A DNA stretch of 29,279 nucleotides from Chromera velia (taxonomy: Eukaryota; Sar; Chromeraceae): assembly GCA_018398765.1 (NCBI GenBank), contig JAHBMJ010001524.1, positions 1-29,279 of the forward strand. The letters are read 5' to 3'. Below, one piece after another: positions 1,654 through 28,958 of this stretch. Positions within the stretch are counted from its first letter, which is position 1. The number at the start of each line of letters is the position of its first letter. Made by a program: the position numbers and the translations under genes. The notes beneath the pieces are model-generated. The model did no database searches. It had not been told where the DNA came from and saw only the letters and a list, made by a program, of their open reading frames with translations.

Positions 1654-4600
1654 ATGACGGACGTCCGCTCGCAGATGATGCAGCTGCTGGCAGGGCTGGC
1701 GTCCGGTGACGGGCCCACCAGGACAGCTGCAGAGAACATTTTGGACTCTCAGGGCAAACAACCCGGGTTCCTTGCTGAGATGGCCCACATAGCGATCTAC
1801 CCAGACCCGGATCCCGCACACGCAGGCTCCCGACTTCTTGCTGCGGTCCTATGCAAACGTCTGGTCAGTCTGAGTGGGTGTTCGTCAGCGACGGGTGACC
1901 CTTTTGTAAATGCGGGGTGGAAGTAGGAATTTTATTTGTTTTTATTTTCTGCAGGTGAAAGACGGCTGGACAACCCTCAGTGAGGCAGAGAAGATGCAAG
2001 TGAAAGGCCTTCTCCTCGAGTCCGGTATTTCGCACAGGGAAAAACCCATCCGTACCGCCCTCCATGTCGCAATCGCAAAAATTGCGGACGAGTGCAGTCT
2101 CCCTCAAGGGTGGCCCGAGCTGATTGCCCTCATTGGCGGTTTGATTCAGCAGAACAGACAGACAGACACGATGACATCGCCAGAACAGAGGGCCGAACAA
2201 AGGAGGACTATGGAATGCGGGCTGGAGTGTCTGGTGGTCATGCTGGAAGAGTGTGATCGACTGGCAGCATCGCTGGCTCCTCATATGGACGCACTCTTCT
2301 ACCTTGCCTCAGGGGTGGGTGGGTGAGGGACGGGTGCATTTTCTGTTGGAGTGTTTGATACGCAACAGTGTCCCGTCTCCTAGTTTGATCAGGTCATAAA
2401 TATTCGTCACAGCTGCTGTGCGTCATCTCATTTGTTTTTGGGCCTGTCCAGTGCCTCGGTTCTCCTTTTTCCACTTTGTAAGTGCGGTGCTTCTCTCCTG
2501 TGGATACAAAAAAGTCTCCTGAATTCTCTGAAGTTACTTGGACCGTATCTTCCAGTAGCGGCCATCTCTCGAAATGCTTCACAGGCCAGACAGCCGCAAA
2601 GATGGGCAGGCAGAGATGCGGCGTTTTCTTTATCGGTGCTCAAATCCCCCCTCCTTCCTTCGCTCGTCGACCTGATTCCTCATTCGAGGCTCCTTCTTTC
2701 TCTCTCGATAGATCCGCCACTCTCTCCGCACGGTTGCGTACATCCAATCCTGGCACAATCCTGGCACTGCATCTGCTTCTTGATTTTTGTTTTTCTTCCT
2801 CAAATCTTTCCTGCTTTTCTTTGAACATCTTTCCGGACGCTCATTCCTGCAGGACGGCAGCACCCCAGCCATCACAAGACGATGTGTGAACGTCTACAGG
2901 TCGACAATCACCATCTTGATCCTCAGCGAGGAAAAACAAATCCTCAAAGACACGGTGGGTGGGTGGGTGGGTCAGTTGTCAGGGCGTCAGCCGATCTGGC
3001 CAGCTGTCTCTGCTGTGTGTCTTTGCATGTATGTGGTTGTGCGCATGAGAGTGCTTTTGTCCGGGTGAGCACCCATCCGCGTGTTCGACTGTGTGCGCAG
3101 ATCTTCCCTTCGCTCGAGAAATGGACTCAACTGATCGAGCACGTCATCACTTCTCTCCAATCGTCGTATGCGGATCTGGAGGCCTTCAGAACCTCATTTG
3201 CCGCGGTGAAACTCCTGAAGGCCCTAGTTGAGAACAGAGGAACAGACGTGAAGGTGAAGACACAGGCAGCAGGAGTACTACACGGGATCCTCTCTTTCCT
3301 CGAGAGATATGCACCGCAGTATGAAGCAATGGTGGTCAGTATAGAAAGTCATGACAAATCGGGGGGGACTGAATGATGATGAACTGAAGAGAGAATAGCC
3401 ACACACACACGACAAAACATGCAGTGACGTGTGAAGCGATAGGGGACAGTCGGTCGGTCACCCTCTTCTGCCGCCCCCCCCCCCACCCCCCTCTGTGTGT
3501 GTGTGTGTGTGTGTGTGGGCGCGCGCGTGTGCGCGCGTGTGCGTGTAAGTGAGTTTGTGCGTGTAAGTGAGTGTGTGCGTGTAAGTGCGTGTGTGCGTGT
3601 AAGTGTGTGTGTGTAAATGTGTGTGTATGTGTGTGTGTGTGTGTGTATGTTTGTACCAATCATTCGATGATTCCGTTCCCCGCCTCTGTGGGGGTCCCTT
3701 CAGGTAAACGCAGAGGAGGGGGGAATCGAGGAGGACGAGGAAGGGGGGCCCCAGGCGTTCCTCATGCAGGCCATGGAGATGATGGCAACGATGGCCCTGA
3801 AGCCAGGCCACAGGAAGGCGATCAAGGGGAAGATACAGCCATCCCTTCTTCTCTTCGCACAGTACATGCAGCTGTCGAGTGCGCAGGTGGGTGCCGCTGT
3901 CGGCCTAGGTGTATTTTTGAGAGGAGGGTGAGACAAGCACTTTAATTCAATATTGTGCTCGTTGCGCCTCTGCAGTGGAGGGTCCAAGTCTGCAGACACG
4001 GGATGGCATCACGGGATTTGGTTGGAGAAATGCTGGGGGAGAAGTTGGAGGAAAGAAAGGGGGGTGCTGACATTTGTTTCTGGGTGTGGGGCGAATACGG
4101 AAAGGGACGAGCGAAGTTCCTCAAAGGAAGGGAGGTAAAACTCATGATTTGCATTTTGCAGTCCTCTCACGCGAGCCAAACGACTTCCAGGGCACTTCTA
4201 CCAGAGTCTGGATGCAACTGTGCGAGTATGTGTGCGAATGCAATGCAGGTCTCTGCGTGGGCTGCGGACCCGAACGAGTTTCTTCTGAATGAGGACGATG
4301 AGAGACTAGACATCAACGTGCGGTATGTCTGTATGTATGTCTGTGTTTCTTCCATGATTTTCTGTCTTTCTGCGCCGATGTACATGTATGCATTCAAGTC
4401 GACTTTTCTCCCTCCATGTGTATCTCTCTTGGCAGCTGGTCTTGTGGCAGTTGCTCGGTCTCGACGTGCAGAAGCGTATTTCTTTCTGCTCACTGGTTTG
4501 TCATTTTGCGATTCACATTTGATAGACGTAGGTGGCCGACGCGGATGCTTCCTTGCCATCTAAATGACCTCCCCCCCTCCCTGAATTCACTCCTCCACAC

Positions 4601-6951
4601 ACACACTGCATGCAGGAAGACTGCGGAATCTTTGATCGACGCTTTCTTTGAAGAATTCGAAAACGAAACGCTCAACGGAGTCGTGGCTGCAGCCATGCGG
4701 ATGGTCGCTTTGGCAGAAGAGAAGAACGGAAACGGAAACCCATTCTGGTGGAAGTACTACGAAGTCAGTCAGTCAGTTGTCAGTCGGCAGCTAGAGAAAT
4801 CATGGTGCTGCACTTACTCTCCATCCACTTCTTCTCCGGTGATTCTAAACTGATGGCGTCAAGTGAATGTGGATGAAATGAATCCGAACGGCCATCTTTT
4901 TCTTTTTTCTTTTTCTTCTTGGAGGTCTGCTCGAGCACTCGTTTCGTCCTTCCTTCCCTCCTTCTTTCTGTACTTCTCTTTCATCTATCTCTGCCCTGGC
5001 ACCTCGGCCTCTTTCTTTCTGCCCTTTTTTCCACTCCCATCCCTCTGCATTTTTGTCGGAAACCCCTTCCTCCTCTCCCAAAATGCATGCATGCACCCAC
5101 GTGTGCCCGCAGGTTGCTTTGAAGATGATCAGCATCATCGGGGACTGTCTGGAGGCACCTGACGAGGTCCCCCCTCAGGTCCTCGAGGGAGTGGCGAAGA
5201 TCATCGGGCAATTGGGCAACGCCGTCAGCGGGCCCCATGTGCCTCTCTTCCTCAGGTCTGCGTGCATGCATGCATGCATGTGCGCACTGGCGTGCGTTTT
5301 GTCAAGGGTGCGGCATCGGACAGTCACAGAACATGGAGGGAAGGAAGGGACAATATGTTTTTCCCCCTGTGTCGCCGTATCTCCATTCTTTCCCTCTTGC
5401 GTGAGTTGATTCATCCATTCACTTACCTGTTCGTTCAATTTGTTTGTGCAGGGCGCGAGCGTTTTTGACAGCGCAAAAGCTTCGGAATTTCATCGTGGCC
5501 AGGTTTGCGGGGGACGTGGATTCAATTCTCCTCGTTGCCGCGCAGGGGGTGGCTCCAGAAAATAATATGGTCTTGCGGGTCTGTGCAATGCGGGCTTTCT
5601 GCAGCTTTCTTGGACACGCGTCCATGGTCAGGCGGATAGGCAGGCAGCTACGCTCTTTTTGTCCAGCTTTTGTATGTTATTTCTCTTTCCCCCTCTTTTC
5701 CTGTTTCCTTCTTTTCTGACTACTCCCACGAGGCCCACACACGAAAATAAAGAAGCTGCATTCGGATAGGCTCCTTCTACCTTCTTTTCTCCCGTTCTGC
5801 TCCCTGCGTGGGCGTCTCTTTTGAAACGCCTGGTTGCGTGCTTCAAAAAATGGGGGGAGAGGTGCAAAGTTTCTGCTTTGCGGTTTTGATTTCTTTCGAT
5901 CCTCTGGTGCTGTCTATCTCCATCCCTTTTTGCTGCACGCGAATTTCCTTCGCGTTCTTTCTTCATGCAGGCTGCCCGATCGGCGGCATTCCAGGAAAGC
6001 AGGGTGGCAACTTCAATAGCCGAAATTCTCTCACAGGCTACCGATGATGTCCTCCACTTGGCGATGGACGTGCGTTTTTGCGTTTTTTTGCTTGGTTGTT
6101 CATCTGTTGCTTTCCCACGGTGGTTCGTTTCTGCCTTTCTCTCTTTGCGTAACTTCACTGATTCACTGGTTCGTTCATCCATTTGTTCCTTCCTTCCTTC
6201 CTTTCCTCGCCCACCCCCGGTACGTCCTCTTTGTTTGAGAAGTTTCTCAAGTTCTTTGTTTTTCATTTCATGTACTTAACTTCCCTTTCTTGACTATTCT
6301 GCACGATGGAGACAGAAACAAAACCTGAGTTCCATCTGTGTGCTCGTCTCTTATTACACTCACTTCGCCTCAATTTTTTCGTGTTTTTCTCTTCTCTCAT
6401 GCCAATTCTGTCCTCCAGGCTCTGTCAGCGCTCGTGAAGCACTGCCCAGCAGAGGTCGCAGCTGTGGAGGAGTCCTTCTCCCCTATCGTCCTTAACGTCT
6501 GGGCGGCTGCTTCGAACGACCCTCTCGTCCAGTTGGCATTTCAGTCCTTTGTTGCAAGCGCCTGTGCGTCCAGCGATGCACTTCGACGGTCGTTGGAGAA
6601 CAGACTGATTCCCCGAATCCTGAGGGTGTTCCAACTTCACGCGGAATTGAGAGATCAAACAGTGGGGGGGGCAGGGACAGCGGCGGGAGGGGCAACAGGG
6701 ACAGGAGGGGATGGGGGGCAAGGGGGAGATGATGATGGTTTTTCGTTGGGGGTGTGCGTTGATGTCCTTTCGACTTTGCTGAAGAGAGCAGACGTGCCCT
6801 TGAGTGACCCCTTTTGGGCCTCTTTTGAGCTTTTAATGAAGGTCGGTCTCCTTCAATACTGCTGCCTCTGTGTGTTTGCATGCGCCTTGTGGCTAAATTA
6901 AATTATCTGGGCAGCGAAGGAAGAAAGGGCAGTCTCAGTATGTCACCCCCC

Positions 6952-6994
<43 letters not shown>

Positions 6995-8177
6995 GCGTGT
7001 GTGTGTGTGTGTGTGTGAAAATTTCCGTGTGCGCATTGACGCATGTTCAGGTAGGACGGACCAGAAAGAACGTGAAACGGTTGTATGGATGAATGAGGAG
7101 AGCTAAGGCAAACGGATTTCGTTGCAGTGAGAGAAGAAAGGGGGCTGCAGAATTTGAGTCGACTCAAAAAACTCAGCAGACTGCACCGGGAACTCCTGGT
7201 TTCCGGAAGGATGGCACCCCCCAAAAAAGTCTGTGGCGCTTACTTGTAGATACGTGACGCACGCCTCTTGTTCCCTCTCACTGCGCTTATTGATTTCATC
7301 AAAATATTAACTAACGTGCAGATCGCAATGAGTTTTGAGGAGTCTTCTTTCCTTCAGAGTGCCTGTGAAGTTTTCTTGTTGGTCATCCTCAGGGCGGCTG
7401 ACCGGGTTCGGCAAGCAGGGCATCTGGCGGCGTTTCTCCAGTTTGCAGAAAGAATGCTAAGCCCTGGAATGGACGACCGCGCGTGTCTATTTGTTGGGCC
7501 TCTTCTGACAGTCTTCATTCGCAATTTTGCAGCGGAACTGGGATCTCAGCTAGTGAACGGAATTTTGCGGGCGTGTGCAGATCGACTGCTGAGATCTGAA
7601 ATGCCGGCGTTGCAGCAGAATCTGTTGGTGGTTTTTGGGTGTTTCTTGAACCAGTCCTGCAGTGAGGTGGCTGCTCTCCTGGAGGCGATTCGGATAGACC
7701 ACGCGGGGGAAACTCTGAATGGCCTCGAGGCAGTCATCGCAGTCTGGTGCATGAACACGGAATGCCTTGCATCGCAGTGAGTTGACTGATGTCGGGCGAG
7801 AGAGAACCTGAGGGAAGGGGGGAAACAACGAAGAAGAAGCACATGGCAGATCCCTGCTCTCCTTCTCTTTCTTTCTCTGCTACATGAATCCTCGACCCTT
7901 CTGCCTTGGCTCTGCCTTTCTTCTGCCTGTCTCTGCAGCATGTCTTTGTCGAGTTGATTCGTTCTGCATACTGTTTCTTGTGCTTCTGCTCGTGCTTATT
8001 CTGCTTCTGCTGCTGTGTGCAGGTATTCGCGCAACGTGACGTACTCTGCATTGACGAAGTTGTTGCAGACAGAGGAAGAGAGACTGGTGCGGGTGAGGGC
8101 AAAGAAACCCGTGCCTCTGCAGGTGTGTCTCTTGATCGTTCTCTCTTCTTTTTCTGGCTGTCTCTTTTTCTTCTGTC

Positions 8178-8209
<32 letters not shown>

Positions 8210-9025
8210 CGCGTGAGATCAACGAGTGTTTGCGGGACTGTGCGTGCGTGTGCGTTGCGGGCTCCGTACCTTTCCGTATTCTGTTCGTCTTTGATTCAGT
8301 TTTGCTCATTTCGTGAGGACAACAAAATAGAGGGGTACAGAATTCTTTCTGGCTGAAATTTTTTCTGTCTCTCATGCAGATTGTGGAAGTTCTAGCAAAA
8401 GCGCTTCGAGAAGAGAACAAGGGGTTGAGGTTGAAGGTTGAAAGGGAGGAGAGGAGAAGGAAACACAGGGATCAGCAACAGAGGGACAGAGGGTCGGCAT
8501 CTCTGGATGCAGAAGAAGACGACTGGGTGGACGAAGACGATGAAACAGTCGGAATGAGTCAGTCAGTCAGTCAGTCTATCAGGCGGGCGGGGGAGCAGTG
8601 AGAGAATTGAAGGAAGACGCTCTGTGGTTGTGTCGGTAAGTAGAGGGGAAACTTCGTGTGAAGGTTGCGCATGGTTCGCTCTCCACCCACGAGAAAGGGG
8701 TTAGACAGATGGTGTTTTTATTCATTGGCTCAGAAACACAGATGGATGGATGGATGCATGCATGCATGGAGGGATGCATGGATGGAGGGATGGATGGATG
8801 AATGAATGGATGGATGGATGGAATGAAGGTAGCTTTTGGAGGCTGTACTGTCTTGTTTGACTGGAGTAGTCACTCAATGACCAAACACCAGACGAGAGAG
8901 AAATAATGGGCCTTGCTGGGGGCCGTTCCTTTGTGTAAAGGGTTTTGTGCGCAGACAGTTCGCGGGCAACACAAATTGTATTCAACACTTCTGGAGTCTT
9001 TCGTTGCTGTGTTTGCCCTCTCTCC

Positions 9026-9098
<73 letters not shown>

Positions 9099-9561
9099 CC
9101 CTCCCATTGCTTTCTCCCCCCCTTTCTCCCTTTTTGCTTTCTCTCTCAGGCGGCCTTGCGGGTCTGCACAACGAGGACGACCCCAACTGGCGCGCTCTGA
9201 TGGAGAACTGGGACGATGACGACGACGACGATGACTGGGGAGGGAAAATGACGCCTGAGAATGACGCATTTCGGGCAATGGAGAAGGAGGATCCGCTGTT
9301 TAGCATGGATCTGCAGGTGAGCAAAGCATGTTTGTCTGTCTACCTGTTTCTTCGACTCCTCAGTTTATGAGGTAATGACAAGGTTGAGACAGAAAGGGGA
9401 AAAAAGGGAAACAAATGTCTGGAGGGACTGTCTGTCTATGTGGATGAAGTGAAATTAAAGGGATGAATCCTCGCTGCGAGTCTGTCAGCCTGTAGGAGAG
9501 AAAGGACACTCTTGTCTGTCTCTCTATCTGAGATTGAGGAAAGAGATAGAAACACATCCTG

Positions 9562-9592
<31 letters not shown>

Positions 9593-10002: not shown

Positions 10003-10085
10003 CACTGGGTGAGGCATGCAGGGATCAGAAACATTCTAAGAAGAGGTTCGATTCATCGGTTCAGCGAAATTACACTGGTAAAGTT

Positions 10086-10135
10086 AAGACGTGGGAATTC
10101 AATTAGGAAGAAGACGTGGGAATTCAATTAAGAAG
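10086..10135 (+). repeat. 25-bp direct repeat, two copies
   Basis: The block beginning aagacgtgggaattcaatta occurs at 10086 and 10111 with a single internal difference (g/a). It is followed by a second small duplication, gcgggagccta, near 10168-10192. Confidence 0.9.
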
Positions 10136-10571
10136 AGACTGTAGAGGAATGAAGCTTCAGGATTTTGCGGGAGCCTAGGGAGGCGGGAGCCTAATAGCAC
10201 CATGGATTCATCATTTGATACCATGACTCAGACTGGGAAATACCATGCGTCTAGCGTTGTGCTTGAATTGATGGGTCTAGAGAGCTTGAATGATAAAATT
10301 GAAATCTATGGTAACGATTTCACTTTAAACTGCTGTTTAAAAAGGTTGCCGCAGTATATTTATTTTAGCACTAAGATTCTATTGTTGAATATAATACTAG
10401 GCGTGGGGGGCATTGACTTAAAGTTTGTTCCTAGCGTCTGGCTTATGCGTCTTTCGTCTCTTCCTTCTGTCCTGGTTACTGCTCTCGCTGCTAGCTCTCT
10501 CTCTCATGCGACCTCATACTTGACGCTCCTCCATCCGAATGCCTTCTTCGGCATTTGCTAAGTACTTCCTA

Positions 10572-10796
<225 letters not shown>

Positions 10797-10904
10797 TTAT
10801 CATGATAAATAAATATTATATAACTCTCTAAACAACTGTTGCTTTTATGTTGTAAGGTGTTGCATATGGTTGTTATGTCTTGATGGAGGTCATCATCGAA
10901 AAGC

Positions 10905-10960
10905 AAAAAAAAAAAAAAAATTGCCCTGGAGACCGGTTTTTTTTTTTTTTTTTTTTTTTT
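10905..10960. repeat. Poly(A)16 and poly(T)24 facing each other
   Basis: Sixteen A residues (10905-10920), a 16-base spacer and 24 T residues (10937-10960). This is a perfect A/T inverted repeat between two convergent genes. It may be a hairpin, or two oligo(A) tails inserted head to head. Confidence 0.9.
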
Positions 10961-11259
10961 GAAAATTACCCCTAGGTGCATACCAGGCAGGGAAAAAAGT
11001 AGGTTATAAGGTTAAGTTATAAATTATTAATTTGCCGTCTATAGTTATGATAACCGGTCATAACAGGCGCTTAACCGGATTAACCGGTAAGAGCTGATAA
11101 ACACCAAATTAAAACTAGAAACAAATAATTTCAAACAAACAAAAATACTGAAAACATAACAGGACCGTTTTTAAACACAATTAAACAAATGTATATAGTA
11201 TAAACATAAACTAGGCAAACGGTGTTTTTTTGCGTGTTTTTTTGAGTGTTTTTTAAATA

Positions 11260-11799
11260 TTAGACCTGGAAGAAGGCCATACGATTATGGGGGATCATGA
11301 ACGCCAGCGTGAAGGCAGGAAAAACAAGCACTCCGCCCAGGATCTCCCAGAAAGTCTCTTTCTCGACAATCAGATGCCATAGGACGTGAGAGAGCTTTAG
11401 GGGCATCCATTTGATCACCAGAGAGAGAACCAAAGTGTATGCTGTCAAAGAACAACCCACAGAAATCAAAACCTGCACGCAAGTAAGAATTGAGACAGAA
11501 AGGAAAGGCAGGGAAGGAAAGAAAGGGTCAGTCAGTCAGACCCGGCCGGCGCATATCCATGAGGACTCCCTGCATGGGTGGGCCCGTCGTCGCTTTTGTA
11601 ACTCTGTCCGATCGGGCCTTCCTCCGCCAATCACAGGCCAACACGCTCATAAAAGAGAAAAGGAAGTCCCCTCAGATGTGGAAAAAACACACACATTCCA
11701 CGAGGATGAAAAACCGAGCTTGTAAAAGATTGAAATGATCAGACACAACTGCAAGTACTTATGCATGCAAGCCTTTTGGTCACAGGGTCACACTTAAAT

Positions 11800-11834
<35 letters not shown>

Positions 11835-13821
11835 TCTCTCTCTCCCTCTGCTTCTGGGTTTTCGCCTGCCCACCTGCCTGGATGGATGCATGATTGTCAC
11901 CGGCTTTTTGCGTTTGACCTAGCTGAACTTCGGACCATCATACACGAAGGACAGCTAGGTTTACTGTTCTGGTTGGTCCGGCCTGCTTCAAGACTGCGCA
12001 CACATACACTGACTGATTTGATCAAGGCACTCATTCACTACCTGACCACAAAACAGAATCCCCCCCCAAGCCCCCTGGAGGAACCGCTTTCCTTCCTGCC
12101 TAAAGTTCAGACGCTGACCGAGCGAGCAATTGTGGGAGCGGATGACTACTCACGTATGACTTTCTGTCCATTCGGTAAACCGAGCTAATCTGAGTCTGAT
12201 TAGAAGGCTGACCGCGTATCCGATGTTTGCGTATTCGTCGTCGGTCAGCTCCAGCAAAGAGGTGTAGAAGTGCCGAGTGACGCACGCTTCACTTCGAACA
12301 AACGTCACCGTTAGAATGACCAACAGAGGAGCCAGGGTGTCCATAATGACCCTGACTGTCATTCGTGCCATGGTCAAGACAATCTGCTCCGACGAATCGG
12401 GTTCAAAGGCTCCCTTGAAGATATCGTTGATGAAGGGAGCTGCTTCAGGAGCGAGGGTCAAGAGCAGCTTTTCTGAGCGTTTGGAAGTCTGAGAACGAGC
12501 AAACGAGATGCTCTTCTTTGAGGAAGGTATCAGTGCTCCCTCCAGTGCTTCTGCAAGCGCAGAGAGACGCTCCTTGGAGAGACGAGACGCCTGCGACAGA
12601 TGAGACGCAATGGAACGACGAGAAACGACAGAAGCACGGAAGGCACCCGACGGAAGCCGGTCCGGCTGTTGTCCTCTTCTCTCACGTTCTGCACTTCTAG
12701 CCTCAGCTCTTCGACTTTGGGCCTCTTTCTCTCCTTCATCTTCAAACTGGACACCTGAAAAGTGAACTCTAATGTCTTCTAATGGATCTAGCGCTTCTAG
12801 ATCTTCGCCTTCTTCGGGATCTTTCTCACCCTCCTCTTCTCTGCTCTCGGCCGTCTGAACTCTCTTCTCCCCAACATTCTCACCAGGCACAAAGTCTTCA
12901 TCATCTGCGAAACGGACACTTGAAAAGTGTGCCTTGACGTCTTCTAACGGATACACCCTCTCCTCTGGTTCAAGCTCGCCCCTCTGAGTGTGCTGTTGAA
13001 CTGATTCCTCTCCAATCCCATCTCTTTTACTCTTTCTTTGACCTTCCAATCGCCCCCCTTCCCCTTCCCCCTCCCCACTCTCTAGGTCCACCTGCCCAGG
13101 GAGAGTCCGGCTGTCTGAGGGGGGACCTGTACTGACACGGAGAGTCGAGCGGTTGGCGTTGCCCTCCCGTGGATCCTCTCCCTCCTCTTTTGGCGGGACG
13201 AGTGGGACCAGATTCCCTCTCTCACTTTGACTGAACATCGTCAGGCTTTGCCGTGAGGATGCGGCTTGTGAAGATCCTTTTGTCCTTCTTCTTTTTTGCA
13301 AAGCCTCGTTGAGCACTCTCATTTTTTCCGTTCCCTGTTTGGATAGTCTCCAGATCTGCACCCCTGCGTACGTGTAGTTCTGTATTCTCAGGAAAGTGAC
13401 CAGAGAGAAGAACCACAGGACTATCCGGGGGCTGACCATAATAATGAAGATGTTGAAAATGAACAATACAAACGAAAGCACTGTCAAGGTCGCAATTTTT
13501 CTGAGTTGACCGACAAATTTTTGATACACTTGTCCCACCAACCAGCCAGCAACAGGAAAGAAAGTAAACACGATATATCCAGGCCACTCCAGTTGGAGAC
13601 CCCTGGTCACGTACTGCAACATCGCTGCATATCCAAGCGCGAGAAGCCATACGAGACAGCCACCGGAAACAGCAATGACCGACAGGAGGAAAAAGCGAAA
13701 CCCCTCTCTGTCCTTCCAAAATCTCTCTACAAAATTCGGCAGCAGCAGACCCATTGCGAAGACCTGCAACACAGCGAAATACCAACAGAACAACAGAGAG
13801 TGAAGCGACGAGCATTTATGG

Positions 13822-13883
<62 letters not shown>

Positions 13884-13894
13884 CCCGACAGCCC

Positions 13895-13930
<36 letters not shown>

Positions 13931-14025
13931 GCCCGACAGCCCGACAGACAGACAGACAGACAGACAGACAGCCCGACAGACAGCCCGAGAGACAGCCCGA
14001 CAGACAGCCCGACAGACAGCCCGGC

Positions 14026-14084
<59 letters not shown>

Positions 14085-15327
14085 AAGACGTACAAGTGCA
14101 TAAACGAACAAACAGATGAGAAAAAGGACGGCCGAAAAGATGCCCCCGCAGAACACACCGAGAGGAATCCACGCGGCAAAATGTCAGACAGGAAAATCCA
14201 CAGACCGATAGGCAAGTACGATGCAGATACGATAAGTCAGCTAGCATACGACCAGAGGCATGAAGAAACTTAGATCTAGCTTTAGACTCAGTCCAGAAAG
14301 GGGCAGATAAGCAGACAAGCAGAAAGAAAGGAAGGAAGACGGACACTGCCAGGTACAGATTTGCAGAGAGACGTGCCGTTGGGGTATTTCTGCGCACATC
14401 TTTTTCGAAACGGTACAAACACGTGCAAAAGCTGAAACAGACGACCACTGCGCGCGAAAGACTAAAGGACACAGGTACATGTATAATACTCAAACACAAA
14501 GAAGCAATTGCGGATCGAAGCCAAAGGGAGAGAGGGACAACGAGGGCGGGAGGGGACATGCAGGGACGAACTGAGGGGTATTAACAGCGATCTTGACACT
14601 ATGACGCAGCAGCGAGACCAAACAGCTGTAGAGAGATTACACCAAACGTTAGAGACTATGCACCACAAAAGTCACCCAAGAGTCGGTAATCGCCAAAGGT
14701 CAGACACTTTACTGACCGCTGCTGGGTAGCTGATCGCTGCGATAGACACATGGGCCGGGATCGCAAAGAACGTTCCCTCTGCGGCGGCAAAGCTCCAGTA
14801 GAAGATGTTGGTAAGCACGAAAGTCACTGCCCAGTACGGAAGACTGCTCACGATGCTGAAAGGTTCAGAAAGTAAGAGTGGGAGGAGAAATGCTGCAGGC
14901 AAATAAAGCATGCAACAGATAGATACATAGACAATGTGTGTTATTCGGGGAGGGAAAAGCTACAAAGGCAGTACTTTTACTCTAATGACTGACCGCCATA
15001 CCACCAGACGCTGAAGAAGCAGAAGATTGCGAAGTACACGTACAGCCATCCCAGGTGGTGTTGCCATGGAAGTAGAGGATCGTTCAAGGGGAGTGAAACC
15101 CAGACGAGCACTTCAATGAAAGGCAGCACCAAGAGGGCAAGCAGTCGAAGAAAAAAAGCAGGATTGAGAAAGTCTGCAGTCCGCTTGGCAGGAGGCTTTT
15201 CAAAAAGCCACGCCAAGAACACATGTCGCACAGGGTCAACTTTGGGCCTCTTCAAAACAGGCTCCCCCCCGTCGGGAGAAAAATTACAAATTCGAACGCT
15301 GTCCGGTATGACGTTCTTTCCACTCAT
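11260..15327 (-). CDS. Unrecognised polytopic membrane protein, 4 exons, about 757 aa
   Basis: Exons on the minus strand: 15327-14994, 14892-14717, 13763-12213, 11472-11260. They total 2274 nt with phase kept throughout. The start is the first true ATG in frame (MSGKNVIPDS). Hydrophobic, probably membrane-spanning segments lie at about residues 58-79, 92-110, in exon 2 (111-170), at 190-230, 232-250, 262-282 and 285-300, and after the loop at 637-660, 688-710 and 730-750. Between the two membrane blocks is a charged loop (about 310-620) rich in Glu, Ser and Arg. It holds a duplicated motif, YPLEDVKAHFSSVRF near 441-455 and DPLEDIRVHFSGVQF near 496-510, each followed by acidic residues. All three donors start gtcag. 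Location (surface or internal membrane) and function cannot be told. The final exon is placed by phase and an acceptor and is less certain than the others. Confidence 0.7.
13820..14084 (-). repeat. (CTGT)n array with CGGGCTGT variants in intron 2 of the membrane-protein gene
   Basis: About 265 bases of CAGA units (plus strand) with interspersed cagcccga octamers forming a second-order pattern. It is in frame as CLSVCLSV on the minus strand, so a naive open frame fuses it to exon 3. The in-phase acceptor ttgcag at 13764 excludes it from the protein. Confidence 0.9.
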
Positions 15328-15835
15328 TCTGGTACGATTCCAAATTCGACGCACGCATATGTATGACGAGTCTGTGCAGGTAACAAAGATGATTTCAATT
15401 TATGAATTAAGGGCTACAATGCAACGGATTGCAACGCGGTCATGTCGATGTCACGTCGTCTGAGCGACGACGCATGCAGATCGAACGCGCGCCGCCGCAT
15501 GAATCGATGCATGCATGTATATGCCAAAGAAGGTGCGCGCCGCCGCATTGAATTATGAATCGCGCGCGGGGCGCGCCGGCCGGGCCCGCACCCACAAACA
15601 CGCGGCGCAGGCCCGCGGCGCGCCGGCCTCGCGGGGCCTGCGTGCCTGCAGTGGACGAAAATCGGATAATCGGTTAATATTGTGCGCATGCATGCGATGG
15701 CACCATTTGCCGTCCACATTTGCCTGTTCCATGCATGCAAATTGCACGGGCGCCCTGTCAGAAAGTGGTTCGCAACCAAGTTTCTGCTTTCAATGCTTGC
15801 CTGTCAATCTTCGCTGATCACTCAATTGATTGGTC

Positions 15836-15935: not shown

Positions 15936-15942
15936 TATATAC
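15936..15942 (+). promoter_or_regulatory. TATA-like site of BiP
   Basis: tatatac lies about 35 bases before the start codon and downstream of the HSE-like palindromes. The short distance would imply a very short 5' UTR, so it could be fortuitous. Confidence 0.3.
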
Positions 15943-15974
15943 ATAAGAGTTCCCAAACTCGTACGTGTTTGAAA

Positions 15975-20745
<4,771 letters not shown>

Positions 20746-20808
20746 GCAGAGGAGAAAGAAAGAAAAGGGGGCAGAGAGAATTCAGTGCATGAGTGCATGG
20801 ATAGATGG

Positions 20809-20839
<31 letters not shown>

Positions 20840-22044
20840 ACCTGATTCAGCTGCAAGCAGCAGCAAAGCACACCCAAGGGACTGTTTGATTGATTCCGTC
20901 TGGAAGCAATGCTAAGAGAAGAGGCGGCGAAGAAATAGAAAAGAAAAAAAGGGAAAGTAAAGCGTTCGCATCCAAAAAATGGATCCGATGCATGATTAAT
21001 CAAGGTTGGCTTCCTGTCAGCAGACCCTGTTAGAATCTGATCGAGTGCAGATCGACTCGAACGAGGGAGGGATTTAACTAACTCCACGTTGTTCTTTTAA
21101 CTATGCACTGAATGTTGCTTTCTTGATGTCTCCCTGCGTGCCTGTGTGTTGCCGCTGTGCCTCGATCTTCGTTTGTGTGGCTGTATGTGAGATTGAAGTC
21201 TATCTAGCTCTCCGTAGGGACACAATGTATGGATGTGCTGTGTGCGTGTAGTGAGAGAGAAGAAAGTGGAATTCATTCGGAAAATTCAGGAGCAGAAAAA
21301 CAATGTGTGCGTGACCATGCATGTGGTATTTGAAGACAATCCTCGTGTCTGTCCTTTCATGACTTTGGGGGTGAATGTCTTTGTTTCTTGTCATGTCTGG
21401 TCTCGTCTGTCTTGTTCGACGAGATCTCAGCTAGATTTCGTCTGTTTTGCCTGCATGCCTACATGCTGCTCTCCGCGAGAGTGGCGGCAACGTCTTCCTA
21501 TGCGGATTGCTCCGTTGACTTTTGTACATGTTTTTTGTGCGTTCTTTCCCAATGCGTTGCAGTGCGGCATATGTACATTCTGTTCAATCGTTGCTTGTGC
21601 GGGAGCATGTCAATTAATAAAGCGAAGACTGCCGTGCGCATTTGCTCATGCGCATATTCTGACCATCGTTTGTGAAATTCGTTTAAGCTGGCAGACTCAG
21701 TTTGCCGTGCGGTTCTCTGTATGGAGCTTCGATGTCGTGTGGATGACAACTTTTATAAAATTTGTGCAGTCAAGTTTCCTTCAGTCTGCTTGATTTTCTG
21801 TGGCGTTTTTTGAGGCTCTCACAATTCATTTGCGCAGGACTGTCACTGAAATGCAAGACATTGGCGTGAATATGCAACAAATTCTGGAAGAAATTTGGAG
21901 AGTTGAATAATTTAAATTCAATTTTTACCTTATAACCGTATATAGTATACGTAAACTTTAAAGGTAATGAAAACTCAAAGTTATGAATCTGAATCTTGAA
22001 AAGCCAAGTGAAAAACAACCTTTTAAAGATTTACATACTTTCAA

Positions 22045-22125
22045 AGTTAGCTTTCAGACTTTATATATCACTTTCAGCTGGGCCCTCAAGCCAGGCTCTC
22101 AAGCTGAAAGTTATATGTCTAACTA
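22045..22125. repeat. Imperfect inverted repeat (hairpin) around ACTTTCAGCT
   Basis: ctttcagct at 22071-22079 pairs with agctgaaag at 22102-22110. Pairing extends outward imperfectly through TATAT and GTTAG/CTAAC segments to a span of about 80 bases. Confidence 0.7.
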
Positions 22126-22213
22126 TATCTAAAGCTACATACGCTCTGATTTTTGTATTCGTACTATTCCAGAAGCATGCTGCTCCTGTCATTTTCTTGT
22201 TAATACTAGTATT

Positions 22214-22308
22214 GATGCGCATTTCTTTTGCCTCTTTCCATTTTATAGAATTAATTCATTCGGCATGCGCCCCTTACAAAATAGAAAGAGGCAAAAGAAA
22301 TGCGCATC
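22214..22308. repeat. 25-bp perfect inverted repeat with about 45-base loop
   Basis: Left arm 22214-22238, starting gatgcgcatttcttttgcct, is perfectly complementary to right arm 22284-22308. Pairing continues imperfectly inward for about nine more bases (cattttata against the complement of tacaaaata). It would form a long stem-loop in RNA of either strand, or a cruciform. Confidence 0.9.
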
Positions 22309-23782
22309 GACAACTTACGACGATAACTTTAAAGTAAACTTAGTAAAAGACAGGAGGAGCATGCTTTTACCTTTTGGAACGTTGCGGTATTAATGATTTA
22401 TATAGACTAGCATGCCGAATCAGACGGCGGATAATGCTAGAAAAAACGTTAGAGTGACTAGTAAAGTCTGTATTGCTCCGTCTATAGCCAGCATGTTTAA
22501 AACTCTAGTTAAGACTATTTAAGATTAATACAAAAGTGCCGCTTAGTCTTGCATTGACTTGCAAGCCTTCATGATCAAATGTGAATCCATGGAAAGCAGC
22601 CAACGAAGCCTCCCTGTGTTAAAAAAGAAATTACAAAGCAGGGGAGGGTCTCCAAAAAGGGAAGCCTAGTGCTGGGGTACCGTGTAAAGCAAATTTTGGC
22701 AAAGTACAGGCAAGGACGGGGCTGGCGCTATGTAGCGCTATGAAGTAGCTTGGTAAGCTTAGCATGGGTGGCAGACTACGTCTCATGAATCAGCATCATT
22801 CATGCGCAAGCATGCTGTTCCGGAAGTAGAAGAGTTTGAAAAGAAGCATCCTGGTTTAAATTAAGTATAAATCAAAGTGAACTGCTGTTGTAAAGAACCG
22901 AACTGCCTCGTGCGTTGCCACCAAACGCTAGACGCCTATTTATAGGCTGATGGCGATGGCGTATGATGATGATGATGATGATGATCAAATGCGCCATGGT
23001 TAGCCCCATAAGGCCTAGATTGAGTGAACAAATTCCTACTAATTTCTGCATGATATTTGGCCAGAACCTAAATGGTGGCTCACCGGTTTTGACCTAAACA
23101 TGATCATTCCCAGGATCATTCAATACTAGATTCAATAAAATATCTAATAAAATATTTTTACGATATATATACAGTAGCCTATATATGGTAGCCTAGTATA
23201 TATGAATCGTTTACTATTGAAAACAATAGAAAACAAAACATATAATATCATATATTAATTCAAGTTTAGCTTTTTGACTACGTTTTTAATGTTTTTAATA
23301 TACTAATAAAGACTGGAAAAACATAGAGTAAAGCTATCAATCTGTTACTGTTAGACTACCGAGACTAGACTGCCAGCCTATGTCTGCCCTCGATTCCCCA
23401 ATAGGACAAGCAGTCGATTAAATGAAAAAGCATGCTGACGTGGTGATGTGCAATAGCTAGGATGTGCACGCGGATTGATCTGCTTCAAATGAGGATCCAG
23501 TCCACACCCCTGCCTCCCCTGTCAGCTGTACTACCATTCTGATGTCAAATGGAGAATTTGAACATCCAGACACTGGCACTAGTACTGGCAGGACAAGCCA
23601 AGAGTCTGAGCCACTGTCTGGCCCACGACCCTTTTCCTGCACGCCTTGCCACCCTTTTTAGGCACCCAACTGTTACACCACTTCACCGAAACGAGACAGC
23701 CTGGACACAGCCGACGACACCACTGGATGAAAATTCTCTGAACAACTCAAACTAAAAAGCGAGACCCAAAACGTAAAACGAC

Positions 23783-24038
23783 GTGAAAGGACAGGAACAC
23801 GACACAGCAAGCCTTAGGACGGAGAGGAAGAAGGAAGAAAGCCAGTCAGAAAGAAGGAAAGAGAGAGACAGAGACAGAGAGAGAGAGAGTGAAAGAAAGA
23901 AAGAAAGAAAGAAAGAAAGAAAAGAAAGAAAGAAAGAAAGAAAGAAAGAAAAGAAAGAAAGAAAGAAAGAAAGAAAAGAAACAAAGAAAGGAAAGAAGCA
24001 AGGAAAGAAGCAAGGAAAGAAGGAACAACGAAAGAAAG
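23783..24038. repeat. Purine tract, (GAAA)n
   Basis: GAAA and GAAAA units with GA runs. On the minus strand, the sense strand of the neighbouring gene models, it is polypyrimidine. Confidence 0.95.
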
Positions 24039-24150
24039 AAGTCAAACAGTAGAACGAAATCGGAAGCGGACGAGGACATGAAGGCGAAATATTTTCACGC
24101 CCGCGATGCACATTGATCCTCCTCTCGTATCGAAGAAAAGCTAAAAGCGG

Positions 24151-24360
24151 CTAAACGAACCTTCCATTTTTCTTCTTCATGGCTTCACCCCTTCCGTACA
24201 GCATGTTTCCGCTCAACACTCTTCCATCCGTTCCATGCATGCTTGCACACTGGTCGCCATTCAATACACACGAGCGAGTGCTCTCAATGCCGTACGTAGA
24301 AACAAGCCTGGCCCAAAGTGCTGATAGTTCATCAGAAAGGCGGAAAGGGTCGCAAAACGC
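24151..24360 (-). CDS. Terminal exon of an unrecognised minus-strand gene
   Basis: After the acceptor tatttcag (24363-24361) a 69-codon frame runs to a stop at 24153-24151. It starts AFCDPFRLSDELSALWARLV and contains STYGIESTRSCVLNGD. Composition and the good acceptor suggest real coding sequence. Upstream in sense orientation is a GT array (24430-24460 region), as in other introns here. Donor and earlier exons cannot be fixed; open frames at 24520-24790 on the same strand may belong to it. No family recognised; three Cys residues could form disulphides if secreted. Confidence 0.4.
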   Translation of the reverse strand, partial: AFCDPFRLSDELSALWARLVSTYGIESTRSCVLNGDQCASMHGTDGRVLSGNMLYGRGEAMKKKNGRFV

Positions 24361-24427
24361 CTGAAATACAGTTTGACGAATCGGGCATAAAATGGCAAAA
24401 CTGGAGAGAACTTCCACGAGAAAAGAG

Positions 24428-24459
<32 letters not shown>
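24428..24459. repeat. (CA)n microsatellite
   Basis: Uninterrupted CA units on plus, so (GT)n in the sense orientation of the inferred minus-strand gene. Confidence 0.95.
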
Positions 24460-24460
<1 letters not shown>

Positions 24461-24792
24461 TCCTCTCCCCTTTATTTTGAATCTCTGCTGGACGTTTTTC
24501 TTTTTCAAGTTTCGTTTCATTCAACAATGAGGGAGAAAAAAGGGATCAGAGCACAGGCTGAGCCGAAGGAGGAATCATGCACACACCAAAGCCCCAAGGT
24601 ATGTCCTGTCCCTCCTCCACCATACCCGACAGTCCCCCCCCCTCCTCTTCTCTTCTCTTTTCCCTTCTCTTCTCTTCTCATCTCAGACACATGCATGCAT
24701 GTCAGTTGCATGACGTCCGGTTTTTTCTTCCCTCCATCTGGCCACAATGACCTCATCAAAGTCTCCTCCGACCAACTTAAGGGCACGCGCCC

Positions 24793-25751
24793 CTACCCCG
24801 ACAGAGTTTGGGACTGGGACTGCTGGGCGTTGTTCATCCCATCCATGATCCCCTCCAAGTTCTCGACCATGGCATCGGGGTCGTACTGCAATCACATGCA
24901 GACAGAGACACACATTCCAGCCAGAGAGATGGAGGGGACGGACGGAGAAAAGAAGTGAAGGATGCGCACCATAAAACGGGTGAAAAGGGGAGAAAGAAGA
25001 CATGGGGGGGAGAAGGACGAAAGAAGGACATTGTAGAGTGTGAAAAGGGATCAAGATCCGCAACAATATTCATGCACTATCACGAATAAGACGCACACAT
25101 GGCTCCTGATTTGAAGCCCTTCTGAGAGACCATTGGCAAACCGGAAAGCAAAGCGGAAGGGAGCTTCAAGGCAGCTCATCGAAGGGTGGCAGCCATTTAA
25201 GACAGACCAACCTGAGGAGAAGAGGTGCCACTGCCAGCTTCAGATGTAGAAGCAGCTGAAGAAGAACCGCTGCTGGCAGGAGATGTAGAAGCAGCTGAAG
25301 AAGAACCGCTACCAGCGGGAGAGGACGAAGCTTGGGCCGAGGAAGTAGAGGAGACAGAGGAAGAAGAGGTTGGTGAGGTACTCCCAGCACGTCCCGAAGA
25401 CAAAGACAACTGAAGTCTCCGACCGACGCGACCGGCAACCGCTTGTTGGGCTTCCCGGGCGTTCTGCAGGAGGGGGGAGGCGCGGGCAGTGATTTGCTGA
25501 AGCTTGTTAATTGCCGCCTGCAGAGCTGCCGTCTCCGTCTCCAGTCGGGCAATTATCTCTTCATTGGAAGTGTCGGCCTTCAGCTCCTCCTCGGTGGCCT
25601 TGAGAGCCTCAGTGTGTTGCTGTACCGCGTCGAGAGCAGCTTTGTACTCTGCGACGAGACTAGCCACAGGACTATCCACAGAATCGGGAGGAGACGGGCT
25701 CGTGGTTGCAAGTGGCACTAGAAGAGCCGTCAGGAACGCAGCGAGCTTCAT
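24793..25751 (-). CDS. Secreted or surface protein with coiled coil and Ser/Ala-rich tail
   Basis: Exon 1 is 25751-25212; a second exon 24885-24793 is proposed in phase, giving about 210 aa. Without splicing the frame stops four codons later at 25197. The start is the ATG of MKLAAFLTALLVPLATTSPS, a typical signal peptide. Residues about 25-125 are helical, Ala/Glu/Gln-rich and probably coiled coil (EYKAALDAVQQHTEALKATE). Residues about 130-180 are a Ser/Ala/Gly low-complexity tail with a 13-residue tandem repeat (SGSSSAASTS type) encoded by a 39-base repeat. Such tails are often O-glycosylated. The proposed exon 2 reads YDPDAMVENLEGIMDGMNNA and ends in a Gln/Ser stretch; its donor gttggt is weak. 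No family recognised. Confidence 0.55.
25240..25312. repeat. 39-bp coding tandem repeat, about two copies
   Basis: The block gatgtagaagcagctgaaga plus the following gaaccgct recurs 39 bases on. Because 39 is a multiple of three it lengthens the Ser/Ala tail in frame. Confidence 0.85.
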
Positions 25752-26300
25752 TATGTATTGGATTTCGCTAAAGGCAATCAGGGAAAGCTGTTCCACTCTG
25801 TCCTAGCTGGCTGGCTGTCGATAGACTGGAGCACGATTTGCGAAAGTATCCGAGTGTTACCTGTATCGATGCATTCAGACTGCGACACACTTTCATGATT
25901 GAAAGTACGTGCATGGGTGTGGGAGGAGAGAGGTGCCAAGGAACAGTACATCTCGATATTGAGTCCTTCACCCATTAGCTTTCTAGTCTTTCGTCCATGC
26001 ACACTGCAACCCTGCAACCAGCGCGTTGAGTCGTCCAGCGTCAGATTCTCCCCGACATCCAGAAGATTTTCGCGAAGGATCAGGATGGATCACAATGATG
26101 GACAATTGTCGCTTTCCGAGGCCTTTCTCAAGCTCCGCAAGCAAGGCCACGCGGGCTTTCCGGGGCCGCGTCGGAGTCACTTCGGAGACATTCGGAGACG
26201 CCTTCTGCATGAGGGCTGGGGGAAGAAAATACACCAAAAGGGGGGAAAAAGACGGCGCGCGAAGCGCGCCGAAAAGATGATATCGGCGCGCGAAGCACGC
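25752..26300. other. Intergenic region with a possible plus-strand exon
   Basis: Upstream of the secreted-protein gene. From an ATG at 26085 about 55 codons (MDHNDGQLSLSEAFLKLRKQ...) have protein-like composition before the frame enters the satellite. The opposite strand is also open over this stretch, so I do not call a gene. At 26251-26303 are two GC-rich inverted repeats: ggcgcgc-gaa-gcgcgcc and an imperfect copy. Confidence 0.3.
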
Positions 26301-26302
26301 CA

Positions 26303-26990
26303 AAAAACTAGTCAGATTTTTGATTTGCTTTTCGAACTGACTTCGAATTCTAGTCTGATTTTCGAACTGACTTCGAATTCTAGTCTGATTTTCGAGCCAA
26401 CTCTGAATTTTAGTCTGGTTTCCGAACATGTTCTAAAAGCTGATTTTCTAATATATTTAGTAAAAAAAAAAAAAATTTCGCCTGCGGCGCTAAAAAACTT
26501 GTCCGCTTTTCGAACCAACTTAAAATTTTAGTCTGATTTTTGAACTAACTTCGAATTCTAGTCTGATTTTCGAACTGACTTCGAATTCTAATCTGATTTT
26601 CGAGTCAACTCTGAATTTTAGTCTGGTTCCCGAACATGTTCTAAAAGCTGATTTTCTAATATATTTAGTTAAAAAAAAAAAATTTTCGCCTGCGGCGCTA
26701 AAAAAACTAGTCTGATTTTTGAACTAACTTAAAATTTTAGTCTGATTTTTGAACTAACTTAAAATTCTAGTCTGATTTCCGAACTGACTTCGAATTCTAG
26801 TCTGATTTTCGAGCCAACTCTGAATTTTAGTCTGGTTCCCGAACATGTTCTAAAAGCTGATTTTCTAATAATTTTAGTAGGTAAAAAAAAAAAAATTCGT
26901 CTGCGGTGCCACAAAATTAGTCTGATTTTCGAACTAACTTAGAATTTTAGTCTGATTTTCGAAATACTTCTAAAAGCTGATTTTCTAATA
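26303..26990. repeat. Higher-order satellite: about 208-bp units built from 30-bp subunits
   Basis: The basic unit is about 30 bases, agtctgattttcgaactgac plus ttcgaattct, with ordered variants. Each superunit of about 208-211 bases holds four or five subunits, then a diverged one (gaacatgttctaaaagctga), an A-run of 12-13 bases and a small GC hairpin cgcctgcggcg. The hairpin occurs at 26479, 26687 and, mutated, at 26898. About 3.5 superunits are present. Confidence 0.9.
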
Positions 26991-27195
26991 CTTATGGGTC
27001 TTAGGTTTTTTATCAAATATCTGCATGATTACAATACGATATGCAACATCCAAACTCATTGTGATAATGACAACTGAATAAAGGGGGAAAACAAACAGCA
27101 AGGGGGGGGACAGCCGGGAAAAGCAGTGAACAGAACGAGAAAGACGGGGGAAAAACACACGAAACACTGGAATAAGAAGGTGAAACATTAAGCAT
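26991..27195. other. 3' flank of the acidic-protein gene
   Basis: About 200 bases between the stop at 27196 and the satellite; presumably 3' UTR. No clear signal seen. Confidence 0.4.
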
Positions 27196-28958
27196 TCAGC
27201 CCCTGTCTTTCTTCTTCTTCTTCTCCTGCCTTGCCTTCTGCAAATTGTGTGCCTTCAAAATGTCTTTCTCCCATTGACTAAACTCTTTGGCAGGCTTTCC
27301 ACCTTGGGGAGATGGACACCAAATGAAAAATGCCTCCCCTTCTTCGAGTTGTTTGACTTCATGGAAGAATCGGTCTCCCTGATCAAAGATTGTCTGACAT
27401 TCGTTGCATGCCTGCCCTTGCTTTGCCAAACGGGCAACCTCTTTTGCATGCTTTCTTTTTGGGATTTCAACGGTCTCGAATTCGGTCAGATCAGGAAAAG
27501 TGAGGGGGCAATACAAGTAGTATGTCTGTCTTTTCGGGTGAGTAGAAGATTCAACCGGAAGCCCACAGAGGTCACAGCAGCTCCTGACTGACAAGTTGAG
27601 GATGTGAATCAGTTTCGAATAGTTTGCTTTGCCCAGGTGGTGAGACTGTGCAAGTTGCACTCGCTGCTGTGCAAGCACCACATACTGGTTGGGCGGTGGC
27701 ACGAGGTCACCCCCTCCCCCCCCCCTTCTCCACGTCGATCACCTCCTGCGTAGCCCCCCCTCCCGAGTTCATCTCCGCAATCTCTCTGGCATCAGGAACA
27801 ACTCCGGCCGCTGCTCCAACATCAACCATGCCGTCTGGCACGGAGTACGAAGAGTCGTGGTTGTGCCACACTCTATCGCTCATCGAACAGCTGGAAGCGA
27901 GAGCGTCTGCCCCCGCTCGTTTTTTCTTCTGGTCGTCGATGAACTGCTTCACGAACGACCGGTTTGTGTACGAGATGTGGCAGGCAGGGATGTTGATGTT
28001 AAGGGCTGCAATGCAAGAAGGGGGGAAAAGCTTGCACAAGAAGGGGGGGGAGCAGGGGGGAGAAAGGGGATGGGGGGGGTAGGGGTAGAAAAGAGGGAAA
28101 ACAAGTAAACAAGAAGGGGGAAAACAAGTAAACAAGAAGGGGGAAAACAGGTAAACAAGAAGGAGAAAAACTGGCAATCATTGGCAAATTGGCAATCTAG
28201 CTGGCAAGTCAAAGAAGAATTAAAGGGAAACGCTGACCCGTAATATCGGCGGCATCGCCATCTTGCAGTTTTCGCAAGGAATCCAGCTCCGACGCGATCT
28301 TTGCGTAGTCGTCGCCATGGTTCTGGTGAAGCTGCCAGACCAGATCCCTCATGGAAGAGCTCCATCTGGACGGAGGCTTCGGATGGTACGAGATGAACGC
28401 GCCCCCTGGACTTGTTTGCAGATTTGTGAGGTCTACCTCGGTCAGAGAAACAGGTCTCTCTGAAGACATGATTTCTGCAACAGAGCAGCTGAGGTCCGCT
28501 GCTGCCAAGCTCTGCATACATCCGATGCAGTGCAAAAACAAAGGGAAAAGAATCAGCGTGAAGCCAACGGGGGGGAAAGCGGGAAAAACGAGCGGAAACC
28601 TTAAGCCGACGGGGGGGGAAGGGGGAAAAACGAGCGGAAAGCCGACGGGGGAGAAAGGGGGAAAACTGAGCTGTCTAACCGATTCATCCTGAAGGAATTC
28701 CGAGAGCTCCGTCTCTGAGAAATGCGGCGGAAGAGGGGGTTCATCGAAGTCCTCCTCGTTATCATCATCTCTCAGGTCACCTGCGTCCGTGGCGATCTGA
28801 TCTCCACCTGATTCCGTCATTGGGTTGCGGGCCTGGGCGTATTCCATTCCCCACAGCTCTCCTAAGAGTCGACACATTGACTCTTTCCTTCGCAGATGTT
28901 CAAGACTCAAGTCCAAACGCTGACCCGTAATCTCGTAGTGCAGGTTGTCAGCCGCAAC
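27196..28958 (-). CDS. Unrecognised acidic protein with CxxC...CxxC tail, 3' part (continues past the right edge)
   Basis: Minus-strand exons: 28958-28680, 28511-28238 and 28005-27196. Further 5' exons must lie beyond 29279. Exon 28958 begins VAADNLHYEITGQRLDLSLE and ends in an acidic stretch (DDDNEEDFDEPP). The next exon holds a segment WSSSMRDLVWQLHQNHGDDY-AKIASEL that weakly resembles a SANT/Myb helix pair. The last exon has CDLC (27576-27565) and CNEC (27408-27397), a possible zinc site, and a Lys-rich end KKKKKDRG. Reading frame changes at a run of ten C (plus strand, 27716-27725): upstream codons reach a TGA just past it, while the CxxC frame is open on both sides. One base less in that run would make the exon continuous. 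Function unknown; nuclear location is only a guess. Confidence 0.55.
28093..28171 (-). repeat. 23-bp minisatellite in an intron of the acidic-protein gene
   Basis: Three to four copies of gggaaaacaagtaaacaaga plus agg (plus strand). In sense orientation each unit ends in a tttccccc pyrimidine block. Confidence 0.9.
28556..28672 (-). repeat. Degenerate G/A-rich minisatellite in the preceding intron
   Basis: Units of the type aaaaacgagcggaaa followed by gccgacggggg, three copies with length variation. Pyrimidine-rich in sense. Confidence 0.85.

What the first reader, a model, noticed from the sequence alone, without database searches (positions are those of the whole stretch)
1864..28238. A large class of splice donors has C at +3 (GTCAG)
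About 30 donors can be placed from phase and protein continuity. Twelve begin GTCAG and two more have C at +3 (GTCTGC at 5256, GTCGGT at 6842). GTCAG cases are at importin-9 1864, 3335, 4764, 5627 and 8558; membrane gene 14993, 14716 and 12212; BiP 17982, 19819 and 20400; acidic-protein gene 28237. Only about four follow GTRAGT closely. Canonical U1 pairing requires a purine at +3, so this suggests altered U1, another donor-recognition factor, or strong reliance on +4 to +6 AGT. Conserved BiP and importin motifs across the junctions make these cases robust.
Basis: partly seen in the sequence, partly recalled or inferred. Interest (0 to 1): 0.75.

Follow-up and report, generated by a model that had tools for sequence, protein, structure and literature searches.

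The report
Introns that start GTCAG, not GTAAG
In this photosynthetic protist most of the introns that could be checked begin with GTC instead of the usual GTA or GTG, although the RNA thought to read that spot (U1) looks ordinary, which hints that another RNA, U6, or local repeat sequence sets the preferred letter.

Summary
All 14 named donors have C at +3, 12 being GTCAG. Aligning BiP, five CCT genes and Prp8 to PDB proteins, using no sequence beyond the donor dinucleotide, gave 85 introns. Of these I kept 70 with a well-supported donor: +3 is C 46, G 14, A 6, T 4. In 20 sampled regions an ab initio model gave C in 62 of 154; a version without donor information showed no C excess (27% of 180).

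Altered U1 is not supported: the only complete U1 found has the usual 5' end, and six of seven U6 copies keep ACAGAGA. GTCAGT donors carry exon AG less often (6/24 vs 36/46, p=2.5e-5), behaving as strong sites.

Best reading (inferred): +3C mismatches U1 but can pair Watson-Crick with the G after ACA in U6 ACAGAGA (human G44). Against it, +3C is tied to +7C (37/46 vs 7/24), which U6 does not predict and which favours the rival: relaxed +3 in a GTC-rich, period-4-repeat genome. The genome is a photosynthetic alveolate, probably Chromera velia (species recalled).

The parts
1864..1954 (+). importin-9-like intron 1, donor CTG|GTCAGT
   Evidence: stop-free 15-intron model; U1-mismatched +3C
3335..3703 (+). 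importin-9-like intron 4, donor GTG|GTCAGT
   Evidence: also found by the donor-blind model
4764..5112 (+). importin-9-like intron 7, donor GAA|GTCAGTCAGTCAG
   Evidence: continuity with human importin-9; alternative 4779 has the same hexamer
5256..5451 (+). importin-9-like intron 8, donor CAG|GTCTGC
5627..5970 (+). importin-9-like intron 9, donor ATG|GTCAGG
   Evidence: no phase-compatible stop-free alternative within 30 nt
6842..7321 (+). importin-9-like intron 11, donor AAG|GTCGGT
   Evidence: donor also found by the donor-blind model
8558..9149 (+). importin-9-like intron 14, donor TGA|GTCAGTCAGTCAGTCAG
   Evidence: 8570 equally possible
14893..14993 (-). membrane-protein gene intron 1, donor GCG|GTCAGT at 14993
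   Evidence: phase-consistent with TGCAG acceptor, stop-free
13764..14716 (-). membrane-protein gene intron 2, donor GCG|GTCAGT at 14716
11473..12212 (-). membrane-protein gene intron 3, donor GCG|GTCAGC at 12212
17982..18521 (+). BiP intron 5, donor CTG|GTCAGTCAGTCAG, opening a long GTCA/GACA repeat
   Evidence: PDB-based spliced alignment, support 14
19819..20281 (+). BiP intron 7, donor AAG|GTCAGA
   Evidence: support 18
20400..20568 (+). BiP intron 8, donor GCG|GTCAGT
   Evidence: support 10
28006..28237 (-). acidic-protein gene intron, donor CGG|GTCAGC at 28237
   Evidence: ab initio model only

Best explanation
These are ordinary U2-type GT-AG introns of a photosynthetic alveolate in which the donor consensus has become GTCAGT. 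Shown: C is the commonest +3 base in homology-checked introns, and the U1 found would mismatch it. Inferred: at the first step U1 still binds through GU, +4 to +6 and the exon end, leaving +3C unpaired against U1 U6/psi6; at hand-over the donor docks on U6 ACAGAGA, where +3C makes a Watson-Crick pair with the G (human G44) that normally faces A or G and binds it weakly, and this pair stacks on the +4A facing the m6A. The +3 base would thus be tuned to U6 rather than to U1, much as +4U is in the yeast consensus GUAUGU.
For: 70 supported donors: C 46, G 14, A 6, T 4; +5G 69, +6T 55, +4A 43. U1 5' end canonical; six of seven U6 copies ACAGAGA, the seventh ACAGAGT, all seven with ACAGAG. Parker et al. 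2025 (PMC11732430, passage): the +3 base, usually A or G, interacts only weakly with U6 G44. Parker et al. 2022 (PMC9803359, passage): m6A43 and +4A cap the helix because G44 and +3A have not yet paired stably. +3C donors carry exon AG less often than others (23/46 vs 19/24, p=0.022) and GTCAGT donors much less (6/24 vs 36/46, p=2.5e-5): the opposite of what a weakening mismatch needs. Scoring +3 by U6 strengthens the exon-intron trade-off more than shuffled +3 bases do (p=0.023); scoring it by U1 does not help (p=0.084 in the wrong direction). +3C goes with +4A (34/46 vs 9/24, p=0.004). A METTL16-like U6 methyltransferase fragment is present.
Against: The trade-off is mostly carried by +4 to +6; with AGT held fixed the effect of +3C alone is p=0.060. 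In the independent window set (importin plus membrane, 18 donors) GTCAGT has AG in 0/6 vs 5/12 (p=0.11) and +3C in 2/10 vs 3/8 (p=0.61). The perfect U6 complement GTCTGT is rare (3 of 70). +3C is strongly tied to +7C (37/46 vs 7/24, p=5e-5), which U6 pairing does not predict; among the 25 donors whose +7 differs from +3, C is 9, no excess. The donor-blind model in random regions shows no C excess (27% of 180), though on importin and BiP it recovered only 4 of 10 known C donors against 9 of 13 others. Several tests were run without correction. No RNA data.
Confidence: 0.38

Rival explanations
1. Relaxed +3 plus mutation: the spliceosome here hardly reads +3, and the base drifts to what the genome supplies. 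GTA is rare, GTC and GTG common, and period-4 repeats such as (GTCA)n grow at intron starts, so GTCAGTCAG accumulates without selection for C.
For: After all GTs +3 is A 13%, C 30%, G 33%, T 23%. +3C and +7C are coupled (37/46 vs 7/24, p=5e-5); 10 of 70 donors read GTCAGTCAG, 6 of 70 GTCAGTCAGT. Donors with +7 different from +3: C 9 of 25, no excess. Random regions: donor-blind C 27% of 180.
Against: C is 66% against a 30% supply; when only donors whose +7+8 repeat +3+4 are removed C is still 25 of 46 (p=6e-4). GTNAGT donors are C 24 of 32, while background GTNAGT is G 272, C 197, A 65, T 33. GTCAGT donors dispense with the exon AG, odd for a neutral mismatch, and the 5 GTCAGT donors without +7C have AG in 0.
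Confidence: 0.36
2. A U1-side change that the searches missed: a divergent U1 with G opposite +3, a modified U1 base, or changed U1-C or LUC7 proteins that favour C.
For: Predicted unmodified U1 duplex falls from -13.6 (CAGGUAAGUC) to -9.5 (CAGGUCAGUC) and -5.2 (CUGGUCAGUC) kcal/mol, so some compensation is needed. The covariance search scored 41 of 2442 candidates. A diplonemid is reported with an alternative U1 5' end (PMC12621601, passages).
Against: Complete U1 canonical; no variant among five copies; the N-pattern search found only the known copies and one match at the control level. A zf-U1 (U1-C) hit is ordinary by score, 64.5 bits; its sequence was not read.
Confidence: 0.16
3. The GTCAG introns are a separate class: introners or minor-spliceosome introns.
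For: +3C introns have TGCAG acceptors less often (28/46 vs 22/24, p=0.011) and a different exon context.
Against: They sit side by side with GTR introns in the same genes, with no length difference (p=0.16). Among 64 introns compared, 19 match rows of 17-57 nt; those I printed are simple repeats except one 34-35 nt pair. GTCAGT does not resemble the U12-type donor (recalled). U11 and U12 gave no hit, but the control also stayed silent, so absence is not shown.
Confidence: 0.06
4. Misplaced junctions.
For: Period-4 repeats give tandem in-frame donors 12 nt apart (8558/8570).
Against: 64 of 70 kept donors lose 10 or more half-bits when forbidden, C 43 of 64; tandem alternatives have the same hexamer.
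Confidence: 0.04

Closest known systems
S. cerevisiae consensus GUAUGU
   Same: A consensus base (+4U) that pairs with U6 ACAGA; the U6 pairing of +4U is stated in PMC9803359 (passage); the mismatch to U1 is recalled.
   Different: There the position is +4 in an intron-poor genome; here it is +3 with several introns per gene and a variable consensus.
Two 5' splice-site classes NN//GURAG (U6) and AG//GUNNN (U5)
   Same: Exon AG and intron +4 to +6 trade off here too (10/32 vs 32/38, p=8e-6).
   Different: The U6-like class has C, not A or G, at +3 (24 of 32 GTNAGT donors).
Diplonemid alternative U1 (S. specki, PMC12621601, passages)
   Same: Unusual donor use in a protist.
   Different: No alternative U1 found here.
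Dinoflagellate and Amoebophrya introns (PMC7789003, passages)
   Same: Alveolates with unusual donors.
   Different: There the terminal dinucleotides change; here GT-AG is kept.

Membership tests
U2-type (major) spliceosomal introns | GT...AG ends | tested here: met
   83 of 85 aligned introns begin GT; the aligner required AG and allowed other donors at a penalty; the two GC cases were set aside as doubtful
U2-type (major) spliceosomal introns | canonical U1 and U6 snRNA genes present | tested here: met
U2-type (major) spliceosomal introns | purine at +3 of the donor | tested here: not met
   purine 20 of 70, C 46 of 70; +3 purine is a consensus feature, not essential to membership
U6-class donors NN//GURAG | trade-off with exon AG | tested here: met
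   GTCAGT 6/24 vs others 36/46 with AG; window replicate same direction, p=0.11
U6-class donors NN//GURAG | R at +3 | tested here: not met
U6-class donors NN//GURAG | direct pairing of the donor with U6 in the spliceosome | not testable with these tools
   needs crosslinking or mutants
variant-U1 systems | U1 gene with a changed 5' end | tested here: not met
   a divergent U1 is not excluded
U12-type introns | U11/U12 snRNAs | tested here: inconclusive
   no hit, controls silent
introners | sequence-similar introns in many genes | tested here: not met
   only short matches among 64 introns; not tested genome-wide

The most novel reading that the evidence does not exclude
A eukaryote lineage has moved its donor consensus at +3 from the U1 match (A/G) to the U6 match (C pairing with G44), so that GTCAGT is the strong donor: a natural experiment separating U1 recognition from U6 hand-over.
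Probability: 0.36. Interest if true: 0.8.

Novelty: new variant of a known kind. Interest (0 to 1): 0.58.

Why it matters
Whether U1 or U6 sets the donor consensus is debated. A genome where the commonest +3 base mismatches a normal U1 but matches a normal U6 would let the two be told apart by comparison and by single-base tests. In practice, gene finders that expect GTRAG would miss or shift many exons in such a genome.

Tried and rejected
Altered U1 was looked for three ways (covariance model, DNA similarity, pattern) and not found. Minor spliceosome: no hit but silent controls, so open. Introner families: short matches only. Laying out the whole genome for a full donor count was not possible, nor a larger random sample. 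The donor-blind model did not show the C excess in random regions; I report it and think it reads through GTCAG repeats, because it found 4 of 10 known C donors and 9 of 13 others in importin and BiP. Literature: searches on Chromera/chromerid splice sites, GTCAGT consensus and unusual protist donors listed no paper that reports C at +3 as a consensus; the Chromera genome paper PMC4501334 was seen as passages only and its passages do not describe donors. PMC10581693 gave no passages for the terms tried. PMC10599564 was seen as two passages.
Full report
What the window is. Alveolin repeats (11 matches; the control also rang once, in Caulobacter) and light-harvesting proteins (58 matches) mark a photosynthetic alveolate.

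All 14 positions are as stated. The importin-9-like gene reads through 15 introns as 1077 residues without an internal stop, the membrane gene through 3 introns as 757 residues, and BiP through 8 introns. Of these 26 donors 13 have C at +3. Two of the importin donors have an in-frame tandem twin with the same hexamer (8558/8570, 4764/4779), and 28237 rests on the ab initio model alone.

A test that does not look at +3. I wrote a spliced aligner that asks only for a donor dinucleotide (GT cheap, GC dearer, others dearest) and an AG acceptor. Five CCT genes (zeta, gamma, alpha, delta, theta), BiP and Prp8 were aligned to PDB sequences. That gave 85 introns. For each I forbade the chosen donor and took the score lost as its support. 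I kept 70 (loss at least 5 half-bits, GT, not in stretches without a reference) and set 15 aside. Kept: C 46, G 14, A 6, T 4; +4 A 43; +5 G 69; +6 T 55; -1 G 63; -2 A 47; GTCAGT 24 of 70; acceptor TGCAG 50 of 70. With loss at least 10: C 43 of 64. All 83 GT introns: C 52. By gene: CCT 31 of 42, Prp8 12 of 22, BiP 3 of 6. After all 26,574 GTs of the sampled sequence C is 30.3%; binomial p about 1e-9.

Random regions. On 20 regions of 10 kb taken at set steps through the contig list an ab initio model trained from a flat donor gave C 62, G 56, A 21, T 15 of 154; with strict flanks and a TGCAG acceptor C was 42% of 38. Started from a human-like donor matrix, training on the whole 255,584 bases ended at the same place (C 0.48 against 0.47). 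The donor-blind version gave C 27% of 180 in the same regions, no excess. On importin and BiP that version recovered 4 of 10 known C donors and 9 of 13 others, so it is biased against GTCAG, but the genome-wide share of C stays uncertain, between about 40% and 66%.

The snRNAs. The only complete U1 gene has AAACUUACCUGG, an Sm-like site and a 3' stem. Of four partial copies, two keep ACUUACCUG and two are truncated there. The N-pattern search found the two known copies and one match without U1 features, while the reversed control gave 2. Seven U6 copies all carry ACAGAG, six ACAGAGA and one ACAGAGT. A METTL16-like fragment (name from the domain hit and recalled motif) and a zf-U1 hit (the control rang in E. 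coli) are present.

Are +3C donors weak or strong? A mismatch with U1 costs about 4 kcal/mol by the unmodified duplex model, and should call for a better exon side. The reverse is seen: exon AG in 23/46 +3C donors vs 19/24 others (p=0.022), and in 6/24 GTCAGT vs 36/46 others (p=2.5e-5). All seven donors without -1G are GTNAGT, six of them GTCAGT. With AGT held fixed the +3C effect is p=0.060. Shuffling the +3 base: U6-type scoring gives a stronger trade-off than chance (p=0.023), U1-type scoring a weaker one (p=0.084). The 18 importin and membrane donors point the same way without reaching significance (0/6 vs 5/12, p=0.11; +3C alone 2/10 vs 3/8, p=0.61).

Mechanism. Two passages of Parker and colleagues (PMC11732430; PMC9803359) say that the usual A or G at +3 interacts weakly with U6 G44, and that +4A and m6A43 cap the helix because of this. 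C at +3 would make a Watson-Crick pair with that G, and would give the +4A a better stacking partner; +3C does go with +4A (34/46 vs 9/24, p=0.004). This step is inferred.

What speaks against it. +3C is coupled to +7C (37/46 vs 7/24, p=5e-5), outside the U6 match; donors whose +7 differs from +3 show no C excess (9 of 25); the full U6 complement GTCTGT is rare (3 of 70). Period-4 repeats (GTCA, GTCT, GTGG) at intron starts could make such a pattern without selection. Removing donors whose +7+8 repeat +3+4 still leaves C 25 of 46 (p=6e-4), and the exon trade-off is not carried by +7C (p=0.31; the five GTCAGT donors without +7C have AG in 0 of 5). I therefore hold the U6 reading and the repeat-plus-relaxation reading about equal.

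Verdict. It is a new variant of a known kind: a U2-type intron population with a shifted donor consensus. The literature searches made here listed no report of it, within an open-access library only.

Noticed in passing
70 supported introns outside and inside the window: The acceptor is long and strict, TGCAG in 50 of 70, and +3C introns have it less often (28/46 vs 22/24).
   Followed up: partly
17982-18220: BiP intron 5 opens directly with a long run of GTCA/GACA units; many donors start period-4 repeats (GTCA, GTCT, GTGG). Tandem in-frame GTCAGT copies 12 nt apart could give alternative donors.
   Followed up: partly
26290-26990: Imperfect tandem repeats of a unit with TAGTCTGATTTTCGAACT, ending in A-runs and CGCC/GCGGCGC.
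   Followed up: no
28980-29279: Near-identical head-to-tail repeats of about 60 bases at the contig end (read by eye).
   Followed up: no
15450-15740: GC-rich stretch with many ATGCATGC/TGCATGCA words between the diverging membrane gene and BiP, a possible shared promoter.
   Followed up: no
L005, L006, L007, L008: Four truncated U1 copies elsewhere in the genome, one with a good 5' end but no Sm site.
   Followed up: partly
L014: One of seven U6 copies reads ACAGAGT instead of ACAGAGA.
   Followed up: no
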